Shown: piece by piece, positions 42,558 to 52,576 of the stretch
Position numbering within the stretch: position 1 is the first letter of the stretch
Layout: the number at the start of each line of letters is the position of its first letter
Source: Rhodoferax sp. AJA081-3
Lineage (GTDB): Bacteria; Pseudomonadota; Gammaproteobacteria; Burkholderiales; Burkholderiaceae_C
Assembly: GCF_017798165.1 (NCBI RefSeq)
Contig: NZ_CP059068.1
Location: 3,844,001 to 3,908,000, forward strand
DNA length: 64,000 bases
Direction: 5' to 3'
Program-made: the position numbers and the translations under genes
Notes under the pieces: generated by a model
Seen by the model: the letters and a program-made list of their open reading frames with translations, nothing else
What the model was told of the DNA's origin: nothing
The model's database searches: none

Positions 42558-43934
42558 TCATTGTGGGTTGTGTGCCGTGTTGCGGACTTGATATGTGTCA
42601 ACCCATGGCAAGTCTGCGCGGCAGGTGGGGCAAGTTTGCCGGCCGGTTGTGCGCGCGGTGCGCTCGGGTTTGCGCAGGTTGCTGGCCACCCATACTGCTC
42701 GCGGTTCGTTGATGCGGCCGGTCGCGGCCCAGCGGCGGGCCTCCAGCGCAGGGTTGTGCAGCATGGCGGCTAGCCACACGGCCTCGTCGGTGGTGAGCTG
42801 GTCGGCACGTTTGGCGAAATAGGTGTGGGCCGCCGCCTGTGCGCCACACACGGTGGCGCCCCAGGGCGCGTTGTCCAGGTACAGGCGCAGGATGCGGGCC
42901 TTGCCCAGGGTGTGTTCCATCTCCACCGCGTACAACAGTTCACGCAGCTTGCGCACCGGCGTGCGTTCACCGCCAGTTACCAGCAGCTTGGCCACCTGTT
43001 GCGACAGCGTACTGGCACCGCGCAAGCTGGTGTGCGGCGTCTCACCGGCGGCCTGCACGGCGCGCTGGTTGTTGCTGCGCAGGGCGTGGGTTATTTCCAC
43101 GATGTCGTAACCGGTGTGCTCGAAGAAGCGCTGGTCTTCTGCGGCGACCACGGCGCGCGCCAGCAGGCTGTTGGGTCCCAAGGCCACGGGCTTCGTGCGG
43201 GCCGGCAGGCCCTTGTTGCAGGTGCTCTGCGCATTGGCCCATTGGTCCGTGCCCAGTCCCTGCACCGCCATGCCCACCAATTGCGGCTGCACGGTCAGGG
43301 CGCGGGACGGCAGGCTGAGCGTCGCCCGTAGGGCGAAAGTGCCCGCGATCTGTGCAGCTTTCAGTTCGGGTATGGCTTCGGCAAACAGGGCATACCCATC
43401 CCGCACCGGGGTCGGCGGCAGGTCCATGTCCAGCAGCAGGCTGGTATGGGTCAACTGGCCGCGCCAGCTTGCGGCCACCGCACCCGAGGCCACCGTGCCC
43501 TGCAGTTGCATGCCAGTACGCCGCACGCTGACATCGACCGCAGGCAGGCGCAGCGCGGTGGTGCCCCAGCTGGGGTTGCGCAGGCTGCAGGGTTGGCAGC
43601 GCAGGGTCAAGACTTGGTCTTGCGCGACCCAGCCCAAGCGCAAGGGGCCTGCGGGCGAGGGCAGGGTGTGGCCCGCCAGTCGTTGCGCCACCCAGGGCGT
43701 GGTGCCCAGCCAGATCAGCGAGGCAACCCCTACCTCTACCGGCACCGGCCCCACCTGCACGGTCGTAGCCCAGGCCCCCGGCGCAGGGCGTATGGCTGCG
43801 CGGGCCACAAAAAATAGCAGCAGCGTTGCACACACCAGGCTGGCGGTGACCACGCTCACCCAGTAGGCCAGACGGTACAGGGCACGTGATGCCGACAGCG
43901 TGGCAAAGTGAAGTAAAGCAGCGATGTGGTTCAT
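42558..43934 (-). CDS. Monofunctional GT51 transglycosylase with C-terminal Cys motif
   Basis: The 458-residue membrane-anchored protein has one N-terminal TM (about residues 25-50), a 180-residue region of unknown fold, and a GT51 peptidoglycan glycosyltransferase domain: VAAEDQRFFEHTGYD (catalytic Glu), GASTLSQQVAKLL and RKLRELLYAVEMEHTLGKARILRLYLDNAPWG. There is no transpeptidase domain. The C-terminus carries a CPTCRADLPW segment, unusual for this family. The start overlaps the stop of the preceding small gene (ATGA), so it is the last member of the exosortase operon. It may polymerise or remodel glycan at the site where the sorted protein is placed. Confidence 0.88.
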   Translation of the reverse strand: MNHIAALLHFATLSASRALYRLAYWVSVVTASLVCATLLLFFVARAAIRPAPGAWATTVQVGPVPVEVGVASLIWLGTTPWVAQRLAGHTLPSPAGPLRLGWVAQDQVLTLRCQPCSLRNPSWGTTALRLPAVDVSVRRTGMQLQGTVASGAVAASWRGQLTHTSLLLDMDLPPTPVRDGYALFAEAIPELKAAQIAGTFALRATLSLPSRALTVQPQLVGMAVQGLGTDQWANAQSTCNKGLPARTKPVALGPNSLLARAVVAAEDQRFFEHTGYDIVEITHALRSNNQRAVQAAGETPHTSLRGASTLSQQVAKLLVTGGERTPVRKLRELLYAVEMEHTLGKARILRLYLDNAPWGATVCGAQAAAHTYFAKRADQLTTDEAVWLAAMLHNPALEARRWAATGRINEPRAVWVASNLRKPERTARTTGRQTCPTCRADLPWVDTYQVRNTAHNPQ

Positions 43935-44524
43935 AGCGGTGTGGCAACGGTGATGGCTTTCCAGGGGCCGTGGGATTGGCCAGCGACCGACGCCCAGTAC
44001 CAGGACGAGGTGTCGGTAAAGCCCTGGCCGTTGGCATCTTCAATGCGTTCACACACACGCACGCTGCGGCCTTTGCGCTGCGCCACAAAACAGCGCCAGT
44101 GGTCATTGGTGTGTGCCTGGGCTTCCAGCTGTTCGTTGGTGACGTGGTAGCCCAGGCCGCGGTAACAGTCGGTGGCGGGGTGCAGCATGCGTGTGGGTTT
44201 GCTTACCGTGCGCAGCACCAGCGTGTGTTGGCCGTCGGTCATGCGCGCCACGGTGCCGGGAAAGTGTTTGGCAAAGCGCAATTCCACATCGCTCAGTGCC
44301 AGCGGGCGCAGAGGGGCACCTTGCCATTGACTGGGCATTTCATCTGTGACCTTGGCAGCACCTGGTGTTGTGCGCCCATGGGGTCCGGCGTCTTCGACCA
44401 CCCTATGTCCATCGGATGCAATGTGGGCGACACCGGCCAGCGCACACAGGGGCAGCACGGCCGCCCACAGGGCCTTGTGCAGCACGCGGTTCAAGAAGCG
44501 GTTTTCCAACAAACGCTTGTGCAT
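43931..44524 (-). CDS. Exosortase-associated small membrane-anchored protein (EpsI-like)
   Basis: The 197-residue protein has an N-terminal hydrophobic anchor (LWAAVLPLCALAGVAHIA) and an extracytoplasmic domain. HPATDCYRGLGYHV near residue 115 recalls the conserved Cys region of EpsI proteins that accompany exosortases; paired Cys follow (HWRCFVAQ, VRVCERI), and WYWASVAGQSHGPW near the end is strongly patterned. The start lies two bases after the exosortase stop. The EpsI resemblance is weak and inferred partly from context; function unknown. Confidence 0.7.
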   Translation of the reverse strand: MHKRLLENRFLNRVLHKALWAAVLPLCALAGVAHIASDGHRVVEDAGPHGRTTPGAAKVTDEMPSQWQGAPLRPLALSDVELRFAKHFPGTVARMTDGQHTLVLRTVSKPTRMLHPATDCYRGLGYHVTNEQLEAQAHTNDHWRCFVAQRKGRSVRVCERIEDANGQGFTDTSSWYWASVAGQSHGPWKAITVATPL

Positions 44525-44526
44525 GG

Positions 44527-45393
44527 TTATCTCGTGTTGTTCAATGGGCGAGGACGATTGGCTGCCATGGCCCAGGTAATGCCCGCGCAGACCAGTGCCA
44601 GCACCACCAGACCTACTACTTCATGGCCCCAGCCAGGCAGCGGTGCGCCCGAGGCCTGAAAGCTCACCAGAACGGTGTTGCGCAGCACATTGCCCACCAG
44701 CACCAACGCACTGACGATAGGCAAGCGCAGCAAAAAGCTGCGGTTGGCGCGGCCTACCACCAGCGCCACCACACAGGCCGTGAAATAGCCCAGCCAGACC
44801 ATCTGCACTCCAGAGCAAGGCGCGTCCACGATGACCAGTTGCCCGTCGACTATCAGGCTGCTGCCGCTGCGCTCCACCGTGTGGGCTGCAGACAGCAACC
44901 AGCGGCTGGCCTCGGCGGTGACCACGCGCAGGGGAAAGCCCGCATAGAACTGAAGTGATGCCAGCAGCGGCAGGGACAGCACCGACAAACCCAGCACCGG
45001 TGCCGTAGCCACCTGCGATGGCAAAAATGCCAGCAGCCCCAGTGCGAGTGACAACAAACCGACCAGCGCCACCAGCAGATCGGGCAACTGGGCGTGCAGC
45101 GCGGTGGTCAACACCGCACCGGCCAGTGCTGCCACCTGAAAACCCAGGCGCGGTGCAGCACGCAGGCGCAGGCGGTGTTGCCATACCAGGGTGCCCAGAG
45201 CCGCCACGGCCAGTACGCCCAGCGGGTCGTCCGAGCCATCGACCATGCGCTGACCCATCCACCACCAGGTTGGCCACAGCGCCACTGCCAGCAGGGCCAG
45301 CCAGCGCCATTCGGCGGCCGTGTCGATGGCGATGCCAAAGCGCACGAAGCGTGGCATCTGCAACAGACGAGGCAGGGTGCGAGGGTGTTCCAT
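44527..45393 (-). CDS. Exosortase (PEP-CTERM sorting transpeptidase)
   Basis: The 288-residue integral membrane protein has about seven to eight helices and the exosortase catalytic triad: Cys193 in DAPCSGVQM, Arg238 in GNVLRNTVLV and His257 in GWGHEVVGL. Exosortases cleave PEP-CTERM tails in the inner membrane and attach or release the protein at the cell surface. It starts nine bases after the VIT-VWA gene, whose product has the only recognisable PEP-CTERM tail in this window. A one-enzyme one-substrate system is therefore likely. I do not assign an Xrt subtype letter. Confidence 0.92.
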   Translation of the reverse strand: MEHPRTLPRLLQMPRFVRFGIAIDTAAEWRWLALLAVALWPTWWWMGQRMVDGSDDPLGVLAVAALGTLVWQHRLRLRAAPRLGFQVAALAGAVLTTALHAQLPDLLVALVGLLSLALGLLAFLPSQVATAPVLGLSVLSLPLLASLQFYAGFPLRVVTAEASRWLLSAAHTVERSGSSLIVDGQLVIVDAPCSGVQMVWLGYFTACVVALVVGRANRSFLLRLPIVSALVLVGNVLRNTVLVSFQASGAPLPGWGHEVVGLVVLALVCAGITWAMAANRPRPLNNTR

Positions 45394-45402
45394 GTCCAGC
45401 CT

Positions 45403-47496
45403 TCAGCTTGTCAAGTGGTGGTAGCGTGCGCGGCGGCGGCGGCGGCGGCGGCGGGTGGCCAGCATGGCCAGGACCGATAGCGTGACGGCCATCGCACCCC
45501 AGGTTGCGGGCTCGGGCGTGCTGGGCACTTCGGCGCCCAGGGCCGTGTTCTCCACACCCTGGGGCAATGGAGAGGGCTGGTTCACGCTGGTACTGTCTTG
45601 CGGCGCCAGGTTGCGCACCACCTGGTCTACCGCCAGGAAGCTGGTGTACTGCGTCAGCAGGCTGTACTTCAAGCCCAGGTCGGTGATGGCCTTGCTGTAG
45701 CTGTCGCCACCCACCAGCGATTCCTGGTCGCTCAGCGATGCAATGCGGTGGCGGGCCCACAGGTGGCGCAGGGCGGCCGTGTCCGCAGCTGTGTTGGCGC
45801 TGATCTCCATGGTTTGTTGCACAGGGCCATTGGCAGAGTTGCCCTCCAGGATCAGCTTGCCCTTGGCCTCGCCGCGCCATTTGCCAAACACGATCACCGG
45901 GCGTTGCGCCAGCAGATCGGGCAGGTTGCGCGGCTCCACGTCGTACACGTCCAGGCCTTCGACGCGCAGTTTTACATTGGTCAACACGGGGGATTCGATC
46001 ATGGTCTTGAAGCGGGCTGCTTGTTCGGCAGCCTCTGCGGGTTTGGTGATGATGAAAGGCTCACCCATGCCGGCGCGGGCCAGTCCTTCCATCAGGTGGC
46101 GGTTGACGCTGGAGCCAATGCCGAACGAAAACACATTGGCCTTGGAAAGGTTGTTGCGCACCAGGTCAAAAGCTTCGCGCTCCACGGTTACATAGCCGTC
46201 AGTCACCACGACCACGGTGCGTGACACGTCGGCAGCCTTGGGTTCGGCGTACACCCGTTTCAACGCGGGGATCAGTTCCGTGCTGCCTCCACCGCCCATT
46301 TGGTCAATGGTGCGCACGGCCTGTTCGATATTGGCCTTGGTGGCGGGCACCGAGTGGTCGTTCAGGAAGCGGTTGCTGCCGGAGAACAACAACACGTTGA
46401 ACGTGTCGCTGGGGCGCAGGTTGCCAATCAGTTCACGCAACAGGGCCTTGGCAGTGTTGAGCGGAAAGCCGTGCATGGAGCCCGAGATGTCCACCACAAA
46501 GATGTAGTCGCGCGGCGAAATGGCACTGGCCGGCGGTGCCTTGGGTGGTTCCACCATGGCCAGGAAGAAGTTTTCATCCTGCCCTTTGTAGAGCATCACG
46601 CCGCTCTCGATCTTGTCGCCCGCCAGGCGGTAGTCCAGGATGAAGTCGCGGTTGTTGGCTGGCTCCACGTTGGGGTTCAGGCCAATGATGGTGGCGCCGC
46701 CCTGCTCGGTAGCGCTGCGGATGTCGTGTGAACTGGAGCGCACTTCCTTCAGGCCAATGGGCGTGTTCAGCGTGACATGGATATCAAACGCTGCGCCCGT
46801 GTGCTGGCCTTTGGGCATGAAGGGCTGTGCCACCCAGGTGGCGCCTGCCTGATTGCTCTGGGGGCTGTTGTAGCGGGGGCCTACAACCGTGGGGAACACA
46901 AACTGGTAGTTGCCGTTGGTAGGCACCAGCAGCTCGGTGTAGCGCAGCTCCACCTTTACATCGTCGCCGGGCAGGATGTTGGCCACATTCATCTGGAACA
47001 CATTGGGCAGGTGTTGCTCCAGCAGCGCTGCCGTTTTGCCTTCTTGCTTGGCGGCGTCGTATTCCACGCGGGCTTGCTGTTTCTCCTTGATCTTGGCGGT
47101 GATCAGGCGGTCGGCCAGGCGCACATTCATGCCATGCACGGCCGCGCGGGTGGAGCCGGGAAATACGTACTTGGCTTCGATGGCGCGCTGGCCTTCATTC
47201 TTGTAGGTTTGCACGACCGTCACGTCGGCGATGACGCCGCTGACACGCACATCTACCTGGGTGGACTTGAGCGGCAACTGGTCTACACCAGGGTTGTCGC
47301 TTTTGACAAAGAAGTAGGGACTTTCGGTCTTGAGGCGGGGGGCGGTGTCACGGTCTTGTGCCTGTGCGGGGCTGCTGACCAGCACCACAAAACAGGCGGC
47401 TGACAGGGTGGTGGTGACGAGCCACAACCAGCGCGACATGCGAGCGGGCGCTTGCGAAGGGGGTGGTGCGGTAAATGCCGGGGCTGTGATAGCCAT
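45403..47496 (-). CDS. VIT-VWA surface protein with PEP-CTERM tail
   Basis: The 697-residue protein has a long signal region (residues about 20-47), a VIT domain (about 75-200), a VWA domain with MIDAS DISGS at 336-340, the Thr in GGGGSTELIPAL, and Asp in VVVVTDGY. The C-terminus is PEPATWGAMAVTLSVLAML followed by eight Arg. The architecture matches the dedicated target proteins (marine proteobacterial sortase target, TIGR03788) that normally accompany a class C-like sortase; here the tail and partner are of exosortase type. GGAG precedes ATG 47496. Probable surface or envelope adhesion or sensing protein under CreBC control. Confidence 0.92.
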   Translation of the reverse strand: MAITAPAFTAPPPSQAPARMSRWLWLVTTTLSAACFVVLVSSPAQAQDRDTAPRLKTESPYFFVKSDNPGVDQLPLKSTQVDVRVSGVIADVTVVQTYKNEGQRAIEAKYVFPGSTRAAVHGMNVRLADRLITAKIKEKQQARVEYDAAKQEGKTAALLEQHLPNVFQMNVANILPGDDVKVELRYTELLVPTNGNYQFVFPTVVGPRYNSPQSNQAGATWVAQPFMPKGQHTGAAFDIHVTLNTPIGLKEVRSSSHDIRSATEQGGATIIGLNPNVEPANNRDFILDYRLAGDKIESGVMLYKGQDENFFLAMVEPPKAPPASAISPRDYIFVVDISGSMHGFPLNTAKALLRELIGNLRPSDTFNVLLFSGSNRFLNDHSVPATKANIEQAVRTIDQMGGGGSTELIPALKRVYAEPKAADVSRTVVVVTDGYVTVEREAFDLVRNNLSKANVFSFGIGSSVNRHLMEGLARAGMGEPFIITKPAEAAEQAARFKTMIESPVLTNVKLRVEGLDVYDVEPRNLPDLLAQRPVIVFGKWRGEAKGKLILEGNSANGPVQQTMEISANTAADTAALRHLWARHRIASLSDQESLVGGDSYSKAITDLGLKYSLLTQYTSFLAVDQVVRNLAPQDSTSVNQPSPLPQGVENTALGAEVPSTPEPATWGAMAVTLSVLAMLATRRRRRRRRARYHHLTS
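45431..45454 (-). repeat. (CGG)8 trinucleotide run coding for poly-Arg
   Basis: Eight uninterrupted CGG triplets code, on the minus strand, for the eight Arg that end the PEP-CTERM anchor. Slippage would change the Arg count in frame. Confidence 0.85.
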
Positions 47497-47586
47497 GGTG
47501 CTTTCTCCAAACGGCGTGCGGTATTGCACGGTGGAGAGAGCATCCCGCGCCAGCGAGAAAACAATGCGAAGGCTTTAGCGCCTTGT

Positions 47587-47613
47587 GTGAAAACTGTGTG
47601 AAATGTCGGTGAA
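47587..47613 (-). promoter_or_regulatory. Three cre-tag half-sites (CreB operator)
   Basis: On the minus strand TTCAC occurs three times, at 47613-47609, 47602-47598 and 47591-47587, each separated by exactly six bases. The known E. coli CreB site is TTCAC-N6-TTCAC. The array lies between creC and the VIT-VWA gene, about 90-117 bases before its start. Confidence 0.85.
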
Positions 47614-47624
47614 AGCTGCGCCCA

Positions 47625-49115
47625 TCAGCTTGCGCGTGTCTTGGTGCTGCGTGGCAGCCACAGCCTGGCAATGGCACCGGTTGCACCTGCTGCTTCGCCG
47701 GCATCTGAACGGTTGCCCAATGCGATTCGCCCCCGGTGCAGGGAGGCGATTTCCTTCACAAAACTCAGGCCCAGGCCGGTGCTCTTCTTGCGCGAATGCG
47801 GGCGGGCCAGCGAGTAAAACTTCTCAAACACCTTGTCTTCTGCATAACTGGGTATGCCCGCCCCCTGGTCACATACGGTGATGCAGACCCAGCGGCCATC
47901 CAGGTGCAGGCCCAGCTCCACCTGCCCGCCCTCGGGTGAAAAATCCAGCGCGTTGTCCAGCAGGTTGCTGACGGCGCGGCGCAGTAAAAAGGGGTCGGCC
48001 TCCACCGTGGCGTCTGTGTCGGCCGCCACCGTGATGCGGATGCGCCGTTGTGCCGCAGCGCCGTGGGATGCATGGGCCAATTCTTCCAGCAAGGGAAGCA
48101 GTGTTATAGGCTCTACGGTGTCCAGCACGCGGCGGGTTTCCAGCGCGGTCAGCTCCATCATGCGGTCCACCATCTCCTGGATGCGTTCAGTCTCCCGCTG
48201 GATGTTGCCCAGAAAGCGCTGGCGCTGTGCTTCTTCCATCGGCTCCTGCAACAGCTCTGCCGCTCCGCGTATGGCGGACAGCGGGCTTTTGACTTCGTGT
48301 GTCAGCGTTTGCACATAGTCGGCCACATAGTTGCGCCCGGCTAGTGCGTCGCGCATTTCGTCGTAGGCGGCACGTAGCAGCTGCCAGGCGCGCCGCACCA
48401 GGCGCCAGGGGTGGAAGCCCTGCTGCGCGTTGACATACCGCGCATAGTCGGCGATCAGGCCAAAGGGGCGCACCAGCCACACCGACACGGTCACCGCCAG
48501 CACCAGCACCGCCACCACAGACAACATGCCGGCGTACAGCGTGCGGCTGCGTGCGGCGGCCACAAACTGGCCAAAGGTCTGCACCGGTTTGCCCACGGTG
48601 ACGACACCAATGATTTCGCCGCTGCCGGTGCCCTGTGCATTGGTGTTCCAGTACACGGGGGCGGCCATGTACATCACGGCGGAATTGGGGTCACCCGGGA
48701 TATCCATCGAGGTGCGGGCGCCGTATTCACCCTTGAGTGTCATGCGCACATCGCGCCACTGCGAAAAGTCCTTGCCCAGCGATTGGCCGGTGGAGTCAAA
48801 CACGACGGTGCCGTTGCGGTCGGTGACATAGGTGCGCAGCTCCACGCGGGTCTTGCGGATATCGAAGATCTGCGCCTCAAACTGGCGTGCATACACGGCC
48901 TTGAACAGCACCTCCAGTCGCGCCGTATCCAGTGCGCCATCACGCACGTCCTGCTCCACCAGCGCGGCCAGCACCTGGGAGGTTTCCACCAGCGACTCTT
49001 CGGCAGACTCACGGTAACGCGGGTCCAGGTCCGAGACCACGTGGTACAGCACGGCGGCCAGTCCGATGGCATAGATCAGCAGGATGCCTAAAAAAATACG
49101 CGTGCGTTTAGACAA
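47625..49115 (-). CDS. creC: CreC-type sensor histidine kinase
   Basis: The 496-residue sensor matches E. coli CreC along its length: TM1 near residues 7-25, a periplasmic domain with RTYVTDRNGTVVFDS, SQWRDVRMTLKGEYGARTS and SAVMYMAAPVY, TM2 near 195-215, then HisKA with TLTHEVKSPLSAIRGAAELL (His273) and HATPase motifs NLLDNALDFSPEGG, DQGAGIP and KSTGLGLSFVKEIA. CreC responds to metabolic or envelope conditions in E. coli; in Pseudomonas and Aeromonas relatives respond to beta-lactam damage. It is 21 bases after creB and followed by cre-tags. Confidence 0.9.
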   Translation of the reverse strand: MSKRTRIFLGILLIYAIGLAAVLYHVVSDLDPRYRESAEESLVETSQVLAALVEQDVRDGALDTARLEVLFKAVYARQFEAQIFDIRKTRVELRTYVTDRNGTVVFDSTGQSLGKDFSQWRDVRMTLKGEYGARTSMDIPGDPNSAVMYMAAPVYWNTNAQGTGSGEIIGVVTVGKPVQTFGQFVAAARSRTLYAGMLSVVAVLVLAVTVSVWLVRPFGLIADYARYVNAQQGFHPWRLVRRAWQLLRAAYDEMRDALAGRNYVADYVQTLTHEVKSPLSAIRGAAELLQEPMEEAQRQRFLGNIQRETERIQEMVDRMMELTALETRRVLDTVEPITLLPLLEELAHASHGAAAQRRIRITVAADTDATVEADPFLLRRAVSNLLDNALDFSPEGGQVELGLHLDGRWVCITVCDQGAGIPSYAEDKVFEKFYSLARPHSRKKSTGLGLSFVKEIASLHRGRIALGNRSDAGEAAGATGAIARLWLPRSTKTRAS

Positions 49116-49136
49116 AATGGCCGCCAGACTTCGCGA

Positions 49137-49895
49137 TCAACTGGGTGTCCCGGGTAGGTCTTCGTTGAGCGCATACCCGGTACCGCGCAGTGTGCGGATG
49201 GGCTCCAGACCCGGCGCCACGGACTTGAGCTTGGCACGCAGGGTCTTGATGTGGGCGTCCACCGTGCGGTCAAAACTGTCGTTGGCATCGCCCCAGACCT
49301 TTTGCAGCAGCTCGTCGCGGGTGTACACGCGGCCCGGCTTTTGCACCAGCAGGCGCAGCACGCCGTATTCGTAGCGTGACAGCTCCAGCGCGCGGCCATA
49401 GAAGCGGATCTGGTGGCGCTCTTCGTCCAGCAGCCACAAGGCGGGTGTTGGCGCGGAAGTGGTGGGCGTGGGAGTTGCCGCGATTGCCACTGCGGTTGCG
49501 GTTGCTGCCACAGGCCGCGCACTGCGGCGCAGGATGGTGCGCACCCGTGCCACCAACTCGCGCGGCGAAAAAGGCTTGGCAATATAGTCGTCGGCCCCCA
49601 GCTCCAGTCCCACCACGCGGTCAATCTCGTCGCTGCGCGCCGTCAAAAACAGCATGGGCACCTGGTGGCCGCCGGGCAGAGCCTGCAGGCGGCGGAACAG
49701 CTCAAACCCGTTCATGTCCGGCAGGCCCACGTCCAGCACGGCCAGTGCTGGCGGCTCGGCGGCAAACTGGGCCAGGGCCTCGGATGCGGTGCTGCACCAC
49801 ACGGGTGCAAAGCCGTCGGTGGACAACACGTATTGCAGCGTGTCCGCAATGCCGGATTCGTCTTCCACCAAAAGGATACGCGGTTTGGGAGTCAT
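49137..49895 (-). CDS. creB: CreB-type response regulator
   Basis: The 252-residue regulator closely follows E. coli CreB: LLVEDESGIADTLQYVL, phospho-acceptor D55 in LAVLDVGLPDMNGFELFRRLQAL, LFLTARSDEIDRVVGLELGADDYIAKPFSPRELVARVRTILRR, and the winged helix with RYEYGVLRLLVQKPGRVYTRDELLQKVW and DRTVDAHIKTLRAKL. An Ala/Thr/Pro-rich linker of about 30 residues (SARPVAATATAVAIAATPTP...) between the domains is longer than in E. coli. Start at 49895; frames upstream to 50201 overlap the divergent cytochrome gene. It should bind the TTCAC repeats at 47587-47613. Confidence 0.9.
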   Translation of the reverse strand: MTPKPRILLVEDESGIADTLQYVLSTDGFAPVWCSTASEALAQFAAEPPALAVLDVGLPDMNGFELFRRLQALPGGHQVPMLFLTARSDEIDRVVGLELGADDYIAKPFSPRELVARVRTILRRSARPVAATATAVAIAATPTPTTSAPTPALWLLDEERHQIRFYGRALELSRYEYGVLRLLVQKPGRVYTRDELLQKVWGDANDSFDRTVDAHIKTLRAKLKSVAPGLEPIRTLRGTGYALNEDLPGTPS

Positions 49896-50058
49896 AGGGT
49901 GGTAATGGTAACGGGCGGTCTGCGGCAAGGCTTGCGGCCGGGGTGGATGCGAAAAGTAACAATATTTTGTCGGTTGCTGCATCCGTTTGTCGCGCAACTT
50001 CGTTTGTAATGGGTGCGGTGCATGTTGCAGCGCATCCAATTTACCGAGGGTGGTGTGT

Positions 50059-50577
50059 ATGAAAAGTTCTTTTGCTTTCCTGGTGCTGTCGGCCAGTATG
50101 GCCCTTCCGGCATGGGGCGCTGGCAGCGTAGACGCCGGGCGTCTGATTTTCCCCGTGTGCCAGAGCTGCCACACGGACCCGGTGACCGCGCCGCGTTTCA
50201 CGCCCTACCGGTTCAACGGCACCGAACTGTTGGGCGCCTTCCAGAGAACACCGCAGATGAATGTGTATGCGGACCTGGGCACACAGACCATTGGCGACCT
50301 GGCCACCTACTTGGGGCTGCCAGACAGCAACGACACGGATCGCTTACTGGACTGGGGCGAAGACACCTTCCCGCAGCTGTTGTCGCCGCGCCGCCAGACC
50401 ACCGGTCAGGCATTGGGCTATACCTACCGCTTTTACCCGGATACCGGCGTCTACGTGGGGACCAAGGACGGCATCGTCTGGCTCTACGAGAGCCGTGCAC
50501 CCGGCGCATCACTGGATACCATCGTCCGCCTGGGCACCATGCGCAGCTACCTGGACCAGATGCCCAACAACCGCTGA
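50059..50577 (+). CDS. Periplasmic protein with one CxxCH haem motif
   Basis: The 172-residue protein has a signal peptide (MKSSFAFLVLSASMALPAWG) and an early CQSCH haem-binding motif after DAGRLIFPV, consistent with a short c-type cytochrome. The remaining 120 residues (TGQALGYTYRFYPDTGVYVGTKDGIVWLYE) do not look like a cytochrome fold and resemble a beta-rich domain. It heads the TlpA-DUF4266-DUF3570-ApbE cluster and is divergent from creB. An electron-transfer role with the flavin-transfer system is inferred. Confidence 0.75.
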   Translation: MKSSFAFLVLSASMALPAWGAGSVDAGRLIFPVCQSCHTDPVTAPRFTPYRFNGTELLGAFQRTPQMNVYADLGTQTIGDLATYLGLPDSNDTDRLLDWGEDTFPQLLSPRRQTTGQALGYTYRFYPDTGVYVGTKDGIVWLYESRAPGASLDTIVRLGTMRSYLDQMPNNR

Positions 50578-50597
50578 ACCACCGTTCCTGTTCTCCC

Positions 50598-51095
50598 ATG
50601 CGTCAATTTTTTGCGCGAGCTGCGGCGCTGGTCTTGGGTGCTTTCCTCGGCCTGCCGGCCGCTGCGGTTGAGGTGGGGGATGTGCCTCCCGCCTTTAACC
50701 TGACCGGGCGTGTTGGTGCCGTCAAACTCAGCGACTATGCGGGCAAAACGGTGTACCTGGACTTTTGGGCCTCGTGGTGTGGGCCGTGCAAACAGTCGTT
50801 TCCGTGGATGAACGATATGCAGGCACGCTACGCGGCACAGGGGTTGCGTGTAGTGGCAATCAATGTGGACCAGAAAGCCGAGGACGCCCAGGCGTTTTTG
50901 CGCAAGACGCCGGCCCACTTTGACCTCGCATTCGACCCCACGGGCCAAACCCCCAAGGCCTACGCTATCAAAGCCATGCCCACCGCGGTGCTGATAGGCC
51001 CGGATGGCAAGGTGCTCAGCGTGCACAGCGGTTTCAAGGACAATGACCGCAGCGCACTGGAGCAAAACATTCGCCAGGCCCTGCGCCTGCCTTAA
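50598..51095 (+). CDS. TlpA-like periplasmic thioredoxin
   Basis: The 165-residue protein has a signal peptide and a thioredoxin fold with the WCGPC active site (DFWASWCGPCKQSFPWMNDMQ) and cis-Pro in IKAMPTAVLIG. It belongs to the TlpA/ResA group that reduces or oxidises periplasmic Cys pairs, including apocytochrome haem sites. Its neighbours offer two candidate substrates: the CxxCH protein upstream and the Cys-ended DUF4266 lipoprotein downstream. Confidence 0.9.
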   Translation: MRQFFARAAALVLGAFLGLPAAAVEVGDVPPAFNLTGRVGAVKLSDYAGKTVYLDFWASWCGPCKQSFPWMNDMQARYAAQGLRVVAINVDQKAEDAQAFLRKTPAHFDLAFDPTGQTPKAYAIKAMPTAVLIGPDGKVLSVHSGFKDNDRSALEQNIRQALRLP

Positions 51096-51120
51096 ACACC
51101 CTGCAAGGATGACGGTTCAG

Positions 51121-51351
51121 ATGATGAAAGCATTGGTTTGGAGCCTGCTCACGGTGGGCCTTGGGGGCGCTTTGGCTGGCTGCAGTACACCTGGTCCGGT
51201 GCAGGCCTGGGAAAAGGGCAACCTGGCCAAGCCCGGTATGGCCATGGACGCAGACCCGCTGGACCAGCGGTTCATGCAACACATCTACACCAGCAAAGAA
51301 AACTCCACCGGCGGCGCCAGTGTGGGTGGCGGCGGCTGTGGCTGCAACTGA
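51121..51351 (+). CDS. DUF4266 lipoprotein with C-terminal CxC
   Basis: The 76-residue lipoprotein (signal ending ALAGCSTP) has the DUF4266 core VQAWEKGNLAKPGMAMDADPLDQRFMQHIYTSKE and ends in a Gly-rich tail with two Cys (GGGGCGCN). DUF4266 genes occur beside DUF3570 and ApbE genes. The protein could be the flavinylated or thiol-modified carrier of the cluster, but no experimentally known function is available to me. ATG 51121 and 51124 are both possible. Confidence 0.85.
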   Translation: MMKALVWSLLTVGLGGALAGCSTPGPVQAWEKGNLAKPGMAMDADPLDQRFMQHIYTSKENSTGGASVGGGGCGCN

Positions 51352-51364
51352 AGAAGGGCCCCGC

Positions 51365-52576
51365 GTGCAAACCCCCGTTTTTACCCAACCAAGCCCTACC
51401 ACCCGCCATCACTCCGCCGGTGGCAGTGTGCTGCTGGCGTCCCTGGTCTTGCCTGGCCTGGCCGCGCTGGCCTGTGTGGCGCCGCTGACTGCGGCCGCTG
51501 AAACGGCGCCCGACAAAACTACGGTGGCACTGAAATACGGCCACTACACCGACAGCCAACCGGGTTGGGAACGTGTGACCGCGCGCTCGCCCCAGCTGTA
51601 TGTGCAGGCGCCAATTGCCGGAGATTGGTCCCTCGAAGCCTCTGCGGTGATGGATGCCGTGTCGGGCGCGACACCACGCTGGCACACCCAGAACGCCGCG
51701 TTTTCGGGTGCCAGCCGTATGGACGATGTGCGCCGGGCGGGCGACGTCAAGGTGACGCGTTACTTCGCGCGCGCCGCCGTGTCGGCCAGCCTGGCAAACT
51801 CCAATGAAAACGACTATGCCTCCCACGCTGCAGGGCTGGAGGCGCGCTGGTCCACCGAGGACAACAACCGCACCTGGTCTGCCGGGCTCGGCCTGTCCAA
51901 TGACCGTATCGACGCGTCCAAAACGGGCGGCAGCGGCTCTGGCGGACAAAAGAGCACGCGGGAGTACCAACTGGGCCTGACCCAGGTGCTCACCACCGAT
52001 GACTTGGTACAGTTCAATCTGACGCGTAGCCTGGGCCGTGGTTATTACAGCGATCCCTACAAGAGTTTTGACCAACGCCCGGACCTGCGGGATGCCTGGA
52101 TTGCACTGGCGCGCTGGAACCACTACCTGGCGCCCTTTGACGCAGCATTACGCAGCAGCTACCGCTACTACAACGACAGTTTTGGCGTCTTGTCCCACAC
52201 CCTGGGTCTGGATTGGGTGCAAAGCGCCGGCGCGTGGACGGTCACACCCGGCCTGCGTTACTACAGCCAAAGTGCGGCGCACTTTTACCTGGACCCTATC
52301 CTGAACGCCCAGGGCCAATACGACCAGATTGCGGTCATCACCCGTGCGGTCAATCAACGGGGCCGCAACCAATCCACAGACCAGCGCCTGGCCGCGTTTG
52401 GCGCGGTCACGTTGTCGGTCAAACTGGCCTATGCCTTCAACCCCGACACCTCGGTGGATGTCAAACTGGAAACCTATAGACAAAGTGCCAGCCTCCAACT
52501 GGGCGGCGAAGGCAGCCCCGGGCTGGACCCGTTCAGGGCCAATTTTGTGCAGCTGGGCCTGACCCACCGGTTTTAA
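51365..52576 (+). CDS. DUF3570 outer-membrane beta-barrel-like protein
   Basis: The approximately 403-residue protein has a GTG start, a signal-like hydrophobic region (LLASLVLPGLAALACVAP), then a long series of alternating strand-like segments with aromatic ends (for example LGLDWVQSAGAWTVTPGLRYYSQSAAHFYLDPI) and a terminal Phe (FVQLGLTHRF). These are features of an outer-membrane barrel. DUF3570 members typically co-occur with DUF4266 and ApbE. It may place the cluster's redox function at the outer membrane. The GTG start is supported by a GAAGGG upstream but is not certain. Confidence 0.85.
   Translation: MQTPVFTQPSPTTRHHSAGGSVLLASLVLPGLAALACVAPLTAAAETAPDKTTVALKYGHYTDSQPGWERVTARSPQLYVQAPIAGDWSLEASAVMDAVSGATPRWHTQNAAFSGASRMDDVRRAGDVKVTRYFARAAVSASLANSNENDYASHAAGLEARWSTEDNNRTWSAGLGLSNDRIDASKTGGSGSGGQKSTREYQLGLTQVLTTDDLVQFNLTRSLGRGYYSDPYKSFDQRPDLRDAWIALARWNHYLAPFDAALRSSYRYYNDSFGVLSHTLGLDWVQSAGAWTVTPGLRYYSQSAAHFYLDPILNAQGQYDQIAVITRAVNQRGRNQSTDQRLAAFGAVTLSVKLAYAFNPDTSVDVKLETYRQSASLQLGGEGSPGLDPFRANFVQLGLTHRF

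What the first reader, a model, noticed from the sequence alone, without database searches (positions are those of the whole stretch)
42558..49895. CreBC-controlled single-substrate exosortase system with VIT-VWA target and transglycosylase
Seven kb on one strand hold creB, creC, cre-tags, a VIT-VWA protein with PEP-CTERM, an exosortase with full Cys-Arg-His triad, an EpsI-like protein and a GT51 transglycosylase, the last four with gaps or overlaps under 10 bases. Known proteobacterial dedicated sortase systems have a class C-like sortase, a VIT-VWA target and their own two-component pair. Here the sorting enzyme and signal have been replaced by exosortase and PEP-CTERM while the target type and regulators are kept. 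The added peptidoglycan polymerase links sorting with wall synthesis, and CreBC links it with envelope or metabolic stress.
Basis: partly seen in the sequence, partly recalled or inferred. Interest (0 to 1): 0.85.

Follow-up and report, generated by a model that had tools for sequence, protein, structure and literature searches.

The report
CreBC-controlled exosortase and wall-polymerase operon
A bacterial stress sensor known for detecting damage to cell-wall synthesis appears here to switch on one four-gene operon that exports a single adhesion-type protein and makes an unusual cell-wall polymerase, apparently in place of the sensor's usual output gene, creD.

Summary
In detail: creB, creC, tandem cre-tags, then VIT-VWA (PEP-CTERM), exosortase Q (XrtQ), an EpsI-like protein and a GT51 polymerase with an unassigned N-domain. 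CreBC control is well supported: 76 of 79 related VIT-VWA genes have an exact TTCAC-N6-TTCAC tag upstream. In 299 sampled family genomes, 48 of 48 with XrtQ have CreC, against 77 of 251 without. Tags also occur in other families and where creBC lies elsewhere. The regulators are not 'kept' from the dedicated sortase systems, and an exosortase serving a VIT-VWA protein is already in print (PMC3237569). New: the operon is a CreBC output, and CreD is missing almost only where its GT51 is present. Of 29 CreC genomes without CreD, 28 have the GT51 (one, G116, without XrtQ); the exception, G133, has an eroded operon. All 76 CreC genomes lacking XrtQ and the GT51 keep CreD. The GT51 and the exosortase can occur apart, so covalent coupling of sorting to wall synthesis is disfavoured. 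Best reading: a peptidoglycan-stress module whose GT51 may stand in for CreD. Regulation is supported by sequence only; the biochemistry is inferred.

The parts
49137..49895 (-). creB, OmpR-type response regulator
   Evidence: NF008296 305.4 bits, cut-off 273
47625..49115 (-). creC, sensor histidine kinase (TTG start as called)
   Evidence: NF008312 576 bits, cut-off 356
47587..47613 (-). two overlapping cre-tags (three TTCAC at 11-bp period), about 90 bp upstream of the VIT-VWA start codon
   Evidence: consensus TTCACN6TTCAC in PMC4689548 (passage)
45403..47496 (-). VIT-VWA protein, 697 aa, MIDAS DISGS, C-terminal TPEP motif, hydrophobic stretch, Arg-rich tail
   Evidence: PF08487, PF13768, TIGR02595; MIDAS and TPEP in 80 of 80 rows
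44527..45393 (-). exosortase Q (XrtQ), C193/R238/H257
   Evidence: NF012182 377.4 bits, cut-off 270; triad in 80 of 80 rows
43931..44524 (-). EpsI-like protein, 197 aa
   Evidence: similar to C-terminal part of exosortase T, 41.8 bits; fused to XrtQ in L018, L027, L049, L053
42558..43934 (-). GT51 peptidoglycan glycosyltransferase: N-terminal helix, unassigned beta-rich domain with a CxxC, catalytic domain with E266 and E332

Best explanation
This is a CreBC output operon for peptidoglycan or lipid-carrier stress. CreC senses a disturbance of wall synthesis and phosphorylates CreB. CreB binds the tandem cre-tags and turns on vit-vwa, xrtQ, epsI and gt51 as one transcript. The VIT-VWA protein is exported, held in the membrane by its PEP-CTERM tail, and released or transferred by XrtQ with help from the EpsI-like protein. 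The GT51 polymerises lipid II and has no transpeptidase domain for beta-lactams to hit. In this genome, which has no creD, the operon has taken creD's place as the main CreBC target, and the GT51 is the likeliest part to stand in for CreD. Shown by sequence: gene identities, intact active sites, conserved tags, co-occurrence, the pattern of CreD absence. From published work in other species: what activates CreBC. Inferred: CreB binding here, co-transcription, processing by XrtQ, GT51 activity, the functional exchange with CreD.
For: Tags: exact tag upstream of VIT-VWA in 76 of 79 related loci, 90-115 bp from the called start in 56 of those 76. All 92 exact tags in 1,255,457 bases of the 80 loci are on the operon's strand, none on the other; the other three loci have a one-mismatch tag near -110. 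Flanks of the tag carry little conserved information. Among 20 genomes scanned whole, 19 have a tag upstream of the operon (in G116, of the GT51), and in G191 and G276 it is the only one (in six of the 19 the place was judged by distance to xrtQ). Where CreC is not within 15 kb of XrtQ, 7 of 10 operons with upstream sequence have an exact tag. Co-occurrence in 299 genomes: XrtQ with CreC 48 of 48, against 77 of 251 without XrtQ; GT51 N-domain with XrtQ 45, XrtQ only 3, GT51 only 1, neither 250. Genus level: 25 of 25 XrtQ genera have CreC, against 36 of 101 others. CreC genomes without CreD: 29, of which 28 have the GT51 N-domain; all 76 CreC genomes lacking both XrtQ and the GT51 have CreD. 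G116: creB, creC, tag, GT51, no XrtQ, no CreD. Other families: L157 has all four genes and a tag; L158 and L159 have an XrtQ-like exosortase, EpsI-like protein and a different VIT protein, with a tag just upstream. Active sites: XrtQ triad 80 of 80 rows, GT51 glutamates each 73 of 74. Published (passages only): loss of PBP4 activates CreBC (PMC2654508), colicin M induces its regulon (PMC3599342), loss of late O-glycan assembly genes raises CreD over 30-fold (PMC12152626).
Against: No expression, binding or processing data. Twenty XrtQ genomes keep CreD, so replacement is not general. G133 has CreC, a tag and a split XrtQ but no CreD, no GT51 and no VIT-VWA on the contigs read, so CreD can be missing without the GT51. 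No exact tag in L136, L139, L141, L149 or at the operon of G549. Genome-wide tags are not all real: in the 20 genomes 113 exact tags stand against 55 for the reversed control pattern. One relative's GT51 (L054) has both catalytic glutamate positions changed. The counts are not corrected for shared ancestry, and the base rate of CreC in the order was not measured. In 49 of 80 loci the tag lies between the operon and a divergent creD, so part of its conservation there could serve creD.
Confidence: 0.7

Rival explanations
1. Synteny only: the operon happens to sit by creBC, and the tags are those of creD, present or lost.
For: In 49 of 80 loci creD is divergent and shares the intergenic region. 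XrtQ is within 15 kb of CreC in 37 of 48 genomes (with G133 corrected).
Against: The tag is kept where creD is absent from the whole genome (own genome), where the operon is 41-46 kb from creC on one contig (G082, G245), in G462 of another family, and in G329 and G372 with a different VIT target. All 92 tags in the 80 loci point towards vit-vwa.
Confidence: 0.08
2. XrtQ couples the VIT-VWA protein to a lipid-linked wall precursor that the GT51 then polymerises: covalent anchoring to nascent peptidoglycan.
For: Tight operon; GT51 N-domain and XrtQ co-occur in 45 genomes, with 3 XrtQ-only and 1 GT51-only. Precedent of transpeptidase-like sorting in sortases (recalled).
Against: The two parts separate: GT51 without XrtQ in G116; VIT-VWA with XrtQ but no GT51 in G033 and G549.
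Confidence: 0.1
3. A descendant of the marine proteobacterial dedicated sortase system with its own regulators kept and only enzyme and signal exchanged.
For: The target resembles TIGR03788 (428.9 bits).
Against: Target below that equivalog's cut-off (551.65); kinase 107.4 (cut-off 612.2) and regulator 126.7 (cut-off 335.7) far below, while CreC and CreB models are passed.
Confidence: 0.03
4. An adhesion or biofilm system that uses CreBC only as a growth-state switch; the GT51 is incidental wall maintenance.
For: VWA with intact MIDAS; PEP-CTERM systems are tied to exopolysaccharide and flocs in print (PMC1569441 and PMC9850573, title and start of abstract only).
Against: G116 keeps the GT51 behind creC and a tag, with no VIT-VWA in the 14 kb fetched. 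Five other tags examined in these genomes precede envelope or wall genes (hand-picked, exploratory).
Confidence: 0.15

Closest known systems
CreBC/BlrAB regulon (creD, cbrA-C)
   Same: CreB and CreC pass curated models; TTCACN6TTCAC tag; envelope function
   Different: Output is an exosortase/VIT-VWA/GT51 operon; creD absent from this genome
Exosortase Q (NCBIfam NF012182)
   Same: Passes the model; triad intact
   Different: I found no paper using the name; I saw only the model's title, which says nothing of partners or CreBC
Exosortase N with VIT-domain target (TIGR04476/TIGR04477)
   Same: Exosortase plus a VIT-domain target
   Different: Window target has no TIGR04477 match and XrtQ is below the XrtN cut-off (45 of 200); L158 and L159 have TIGR04477-like targets (115 and 106, cut-off 250) beside XrtQ-like enzymes
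Proteobacterial dedicated sortase system (TIGR03784/03785/03787/03788)
   Same: VIT-VWA target beside sorting enzyme and a two-component pair (arrangement partly recalled; adjacent sortase in PMC3237569)
   Different: Exosortase instead of sortase; CreBC instead of its own pair; the three models that could match fall below cut-off
Monofunctional peptidoglycan glycosyltransferase MtgA (TIGR02070)
   Same: Single GT51 domain, no transpeptidase found by Pfam
   Different: Below cut-off (132.6 of 182.65); extra N-terminal domain with a conserved CxxC and two more conserved cysteines

Membership tests
Exosortase Q (NF012182) | score over curated cut-off 270 | tested here: met
   377.4 bits
Exosortase Q (NF012182) | Cys-Arg-His triad | tested here: met
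   C193, R238, H257 in 80 of 80 rows; the role of these residues is recalled
CreBC two-component system | both proteins over curated cut-offs | tested here: met
   305.4 of 273 and 576 of 356
CreBC regulon | TTCACN6TTCAC upstream of the controlled gene | tested here: met
   window 47587-47613; 76 of 79 relatives
CreBC regulon | transcription depends on CreB | not testable with these tools
   needs expression data
CreBCD | creD in the genome | tested here: not met
   no PF06123 match in own genome
Proteobacterial dedicated sortase system | target over TIGR03788 cut-off | tested here: not met
   428.9 of 551.65
Proteobacterial dedicated sortase system | cognate kinase TIGR03785 and regulator TIGR03787 | tested here: not met
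   107.4 of 612.2 and 126.7 of 335.7
Proteobacterial dedicated sortase system | sortase TIGR03784 in the genome | not tested
   none among the six proteins scanned; genome not searched
PEP-CTERM protein | TIGR02595 domain cut-off | tested here: met
   18.2 of 16
PEP-CTERM protein | PF07589 gathering score | tested here: not met
   16.5 of 20.7; 19.9 in the genome search
EpsI family (TIGR02914) | match to the EpsI model | tested here: not met
   no match at E<=0.01; best match exosortase T C-terminal part, 41.8 bits
Monofunctional transglycosylase (TIGR02070) | score over cut-off 182.65 | tested here: not met
   132.6
GT51 (PF00912) | gathering score and both catalytic glutamates | tested here: met
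   134.6 of 27; E266 and E332 each in 73 of 74; their roles are recalled
AsmA/YhdP-like, for the GT51 N-domain | profile or fold match | tested here: inconclusive

The most novel reading that the evidence does not exclude
The GT51 is a functional replacement for CreD: both relieve the same lipid-carrier or lipid II blockage that CreC senses, so CreBC nearly always keeps at least one of the two. The exosortase-sorted VIT-VWA protein is a surface sensor or patch deployed at the damaged wall by the same signal. This would give CreD, whose function is unsettled, a testable biochemical equivalent.
Probability: 0.27. Interest if true: 0.85.

Novelty: new variant of a known kind. Interest (0 to 1): 0.62.

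Why it matters
CreBC is studied largely for beta-lactam and envelope responses, and its best-known target CreD has no settled function. A natural set of genomes in which CreD is missing almost only where CreBC has gained a wall polymerase makes that function testable by complementation. It also gives one exosortase a likely trigger, one target and a likely physiological setting.

Tried and rejected
Rejected: 'regulators kept from the sortase system'. Disfavoured: obligate coupling of sorting and GT51, because the parts occur apart.

Errors and limits. One search used a wrong frame for VIT-VWA; its VIT column is void and was redone. The first gene caller was misled by shadow ORFs and was replaced. 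In one search the one-mismatch scan of L136 started inside the gene, because the VIT hit there begins at residue 477; only the exact scan (none) is valid. One search counted G133 as unlinked from a second contig; one search shows its XrtQ start beside creC, so the count is 37 within 15 kb and 11 not. G025 has only the first half of XrtQ behind creC and a tag, and no VIT-VWA there. The 48 XrtQ genomes are 45 over cut-off plus these two and the split hit in G105; weak hits to other exosortases (E about 4e-8 to 4e-4) were dropped. The 299 genomes are an even draw from a larger family; 7 of them miss the 90/5 quality line in the tallies. CreC was listed at E<=1e-100, CreD at 1e-10, the N-domain at 1e-5.

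Related loci: the 80 best of 96 relatives were returned. They are not independent samples. Of 11 genomes with CreC not within 15 kb, G105 has no upstream sequence; of the other ten, seven have an exact tag and three (G015, G170, G186) do not. In several of these 'unlinked' means different contigs of a draft; on one contig are G015 (no tag), G082, G245 and G233 (tag). Of the 20 genomes, 11 were chosen after a tag had been seen. Co-occurrence was not corrected for phylogeny beyond the genus count. VIT-VWA was not searched genome-wide in G116, G025 or G133.

Papers: one search listed 40 of 70; none listed holds 'exosortase' together with a Cre term, 30 were not seen. Searches returned none; the listings showed no title describing this operon. 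I read passages of PMC12152626, PMC3599342, PMC4689548, PMC2654508 and PMC3237569, none in full.
Full report
What is there. The window lies in a complete 5.17-Mb genome. On the minus strand, in order of transcription, are creB, creC, a 128-bp gap, VIT-VWA, exosortase, an EpsI-like protein and a GT51 polymerase. The last four genes are 9, 2 and -4 bp apart. The published tag, TTCACN6TTCAC, lies upstream of creD and is critical for binding of CreB/BlrA (PMC4689548, passage read). The own genome has five exact tags, two of them here; the reversed control pattern gives two. It has no CreD.

The exosortase is not alone. The genome has 14 other PEP-CTERM proteins over the Pfam cut-off, but also exosortase B with a B-type EpsI, beside which three of those proteins lie. 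The tails that my script recovered (11 of 14) read VPEPE[ST][YFL]A, while the VIT-VWA tail reads VPSTPEPATWGA and ends in a longer basic stretch. In relatives the tail keeps TPEP (80 of 80 rows), basic residues and a Thr next to the last residue (79 of 80 rows). So the XrtQ/VIT-VWA pair looks dedicated; that XrtB serves the other 14 is inference.

Conservation of the locus. A scan of one-per-species genomes returned the best 80 of 96 XrtQ relatives, mostly Rhodoferax, Curvibacter, Variovorax, Xenophilus and Polaromonas. After correcting the gene calling, VIT-VWA and Xrt are found in 79 loci each, EpsI in 74, GT51 in 74, CreC in 51, CreD in 49, a PBP1A-type protein in 53 and CreB in 33 of 80; many absences are contig ends, split calls or the edge of the fetched stretch. 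The common Variovorax arrangement is creB, creC, then a PBP1A-type gene and creD in the opposite direction, then the divergent vit-vwa, xrtQ, epsI, gt51 operon. Rhodoferax-type loci, like the window, have vit-vwa after creC with no creD between. In four loci XrtQ and the EpsI-like protein are one ORF, which ties the EpsI-like protein to the exosortase.

The tags. Upstream of VIT-VWA 76 of 79 loci have an exact tag, 90-115 bp from the called start codon in 56 of the 76. All 92 exact tags in the 1.26 Mb of these loci point towards the operon, none the other way, and the three remaining loci have a one-mismatch tag at about -110. Sixteen loci carry the overlapping double form. In 48 dereplicated rows (under 80% identical) the flanks carry little information (the TTCAC letters themselves were selected for). 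In 20 whole genomes 113 exact tags were found, against 55 for the reversed control pattern, so about half of all tags genome-wide may be chance. Yet 19 of the 20 have one upstream of the operon (in G116, of the GT51), and in G191 and G276 it is the only one.

Linkage is not the whole reason. In 11 of 48 XrtQ genomes CreC is not within 15 kb. Of the ten with upstream sequence, seven have an exact tag, including G082, G245 and G233, where creC is on the same contig 46, 41 and 26 kb away; G015, with creC 1.87 Mb away, has none. Outside the family, 300 genomes of the order gave four more hits. G462 has the whole four-gene operon with a tag about 100 bp upstream. G329 and G372 have an XrtQ-like exosortase (129 bits, under the cut-off), an EpsI-like protein and a different, membrane-type VIT protein related to the exosortase N target model, again with a tag directly upstream. 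G549 has VIT-VWA and a fused XrtQ-EpsI, no GT51 and only a one-mismatch tag. All four genomes have CreC; the base rate in the order was not measured. So the tag follows the exosortase/VIT unit across different target architectures.

Co-occurrence. The same 299 family genomes were searched for XrtQ, CreC, the GT51 N-domain and CreD. XrtQ: 48; CreC: 125; GT51 N-domain: 46; CreD: 98. All 48 XrtQ genomes have CreC; of the 251 others 77 do. XrtQ and GT51 are together in 45; XrtQ without GT51 in G025, G033 and G133; GT51 without XrtQ in G116. Two species of the own genus lack both XrtQ and CreC (G112, G197). At genus level all 25 XrtQ genera have CreC against 36 of 101 others.

The unexpected part is CreD. 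CreC and CreD normally go together (96 of 125 CreC genomes). The 29 CreC genomes without CreD are 28 XrtQ genomes and G116. Of these 29, 28 have the GT51. The exception is G133, where the tag behind creC is followed directly by the start of a split XrtQ and where I found no VIT-VWA, EpsI or GT51 on the contigs read and no GT51 N-domain in the genome. The other two XrtQ genomes without GT51 keep CreD: G033, with intact VIT-VWA, XrtQ and EpsI, and G025, with half an XrtQ behind the tag. G116, complete in one contig, has creB, creC, a tag and then the GT51; it has no XrtQ and no CreD in the genome, and no VIT-VWA in the 14 kb fetched. The 76 CreC genomes with neither XrtQ nor GT51 all have CreD. 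So in this sample the GT51 tracks the absence of CreD with one exception. Twenty XrtQ genomes keep both, so this is permission to lose CreD, not a rule.

A wider regulon, exploratory. Of the non-operon tags I looked at five that resembled the operon's tag, plus two in the own genome. The five precede, in sense orientation and within about 190 bp of the called start, a geranylgeranyl-reductase-family FAD enzyme (two genomes; E. coli CbrA is of that kind, recalled), an alpha-2-macroglobulin followed by an ORF with penicillin-binding-protein motifs, a MurA paralogue, and a VanW-like protein. The two in the own genome led to nothing convincing. The five were hand-picked, so they only suggest an envelope regulon.

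Comparison with what is known. An exosortase-sorted member of the same VIT/VWA family was noted in Verrucomicrobium spinosum in 2011 (PMC3237569, passage), NCBIfam already holds exosortase Q and an exosortase N/VIT pair, and CreBC with its tag is well known. I found no paper joining them (with the limits stated under Tried and rejected). I rate it a new variant of a known kind: a dedicated exosortase system that is a CreBC output and carries a polymerase that may be exchangeable with CreD.

Noticed in passing
L161 2476, L162 2276, L163 2405, L164 2297, L165 2682: Exact cre-tags in sense orientation shortly upstream of a geranylgeranyl-reductase-family FAD enzyme (two genomes), an alpha-2-macroglobulin gene, a MurA paralogue and a VanW-like gene: a possible wider CreB envelope regulon (hand-picked sites).
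   Followed up: partly
L158 10464-12935, L159 9996-12395: Membrane-type VIT proteins related to the exosortase N target model beside XrtQ-like exosortases in another family, each with a cre-tag directly upstream.
   Followed up: partly
L173 6746-7227, L177 162-657 with L176 78-791: Eroded operons: in G025 half an XrtQ, and in G133 a split XrtQ, stand directly behind creC and a cre-tag with no VIT-VWA between.
   Followed up: partly
L054 11214-12512: GT51 homologue in which both catalytic glutamate positions are changed: possibly an inactive copy.
   Followed up: no
L018, L027, L049, L053: XrtQ and the EpsI-like protein are one continuous ORF of 477-478 aa.
   Followed up: partly
L018 1768-4089 and like positions in 53 of 80 loci: A PBP1A-type bifunctional penicillin-binding protein gene between creC and vit-vwa, on the opposite strand to both; beside creD in 47 of the 53, without a called creD in 6.
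   Followed up: no
G329 contigs 12 and 39: Two CreC homologues in one genome, one of them with an exact cre-tag beside it.
   Followed up: no
window 50013-52576: Near creB on the plus strand: a thioredoxin-like protein, a short lipoprotein-like ORF and a 471-aa ORF that looks like an outer-membrane protein; names from reading the ORFs, not searched.
   Followed up: no
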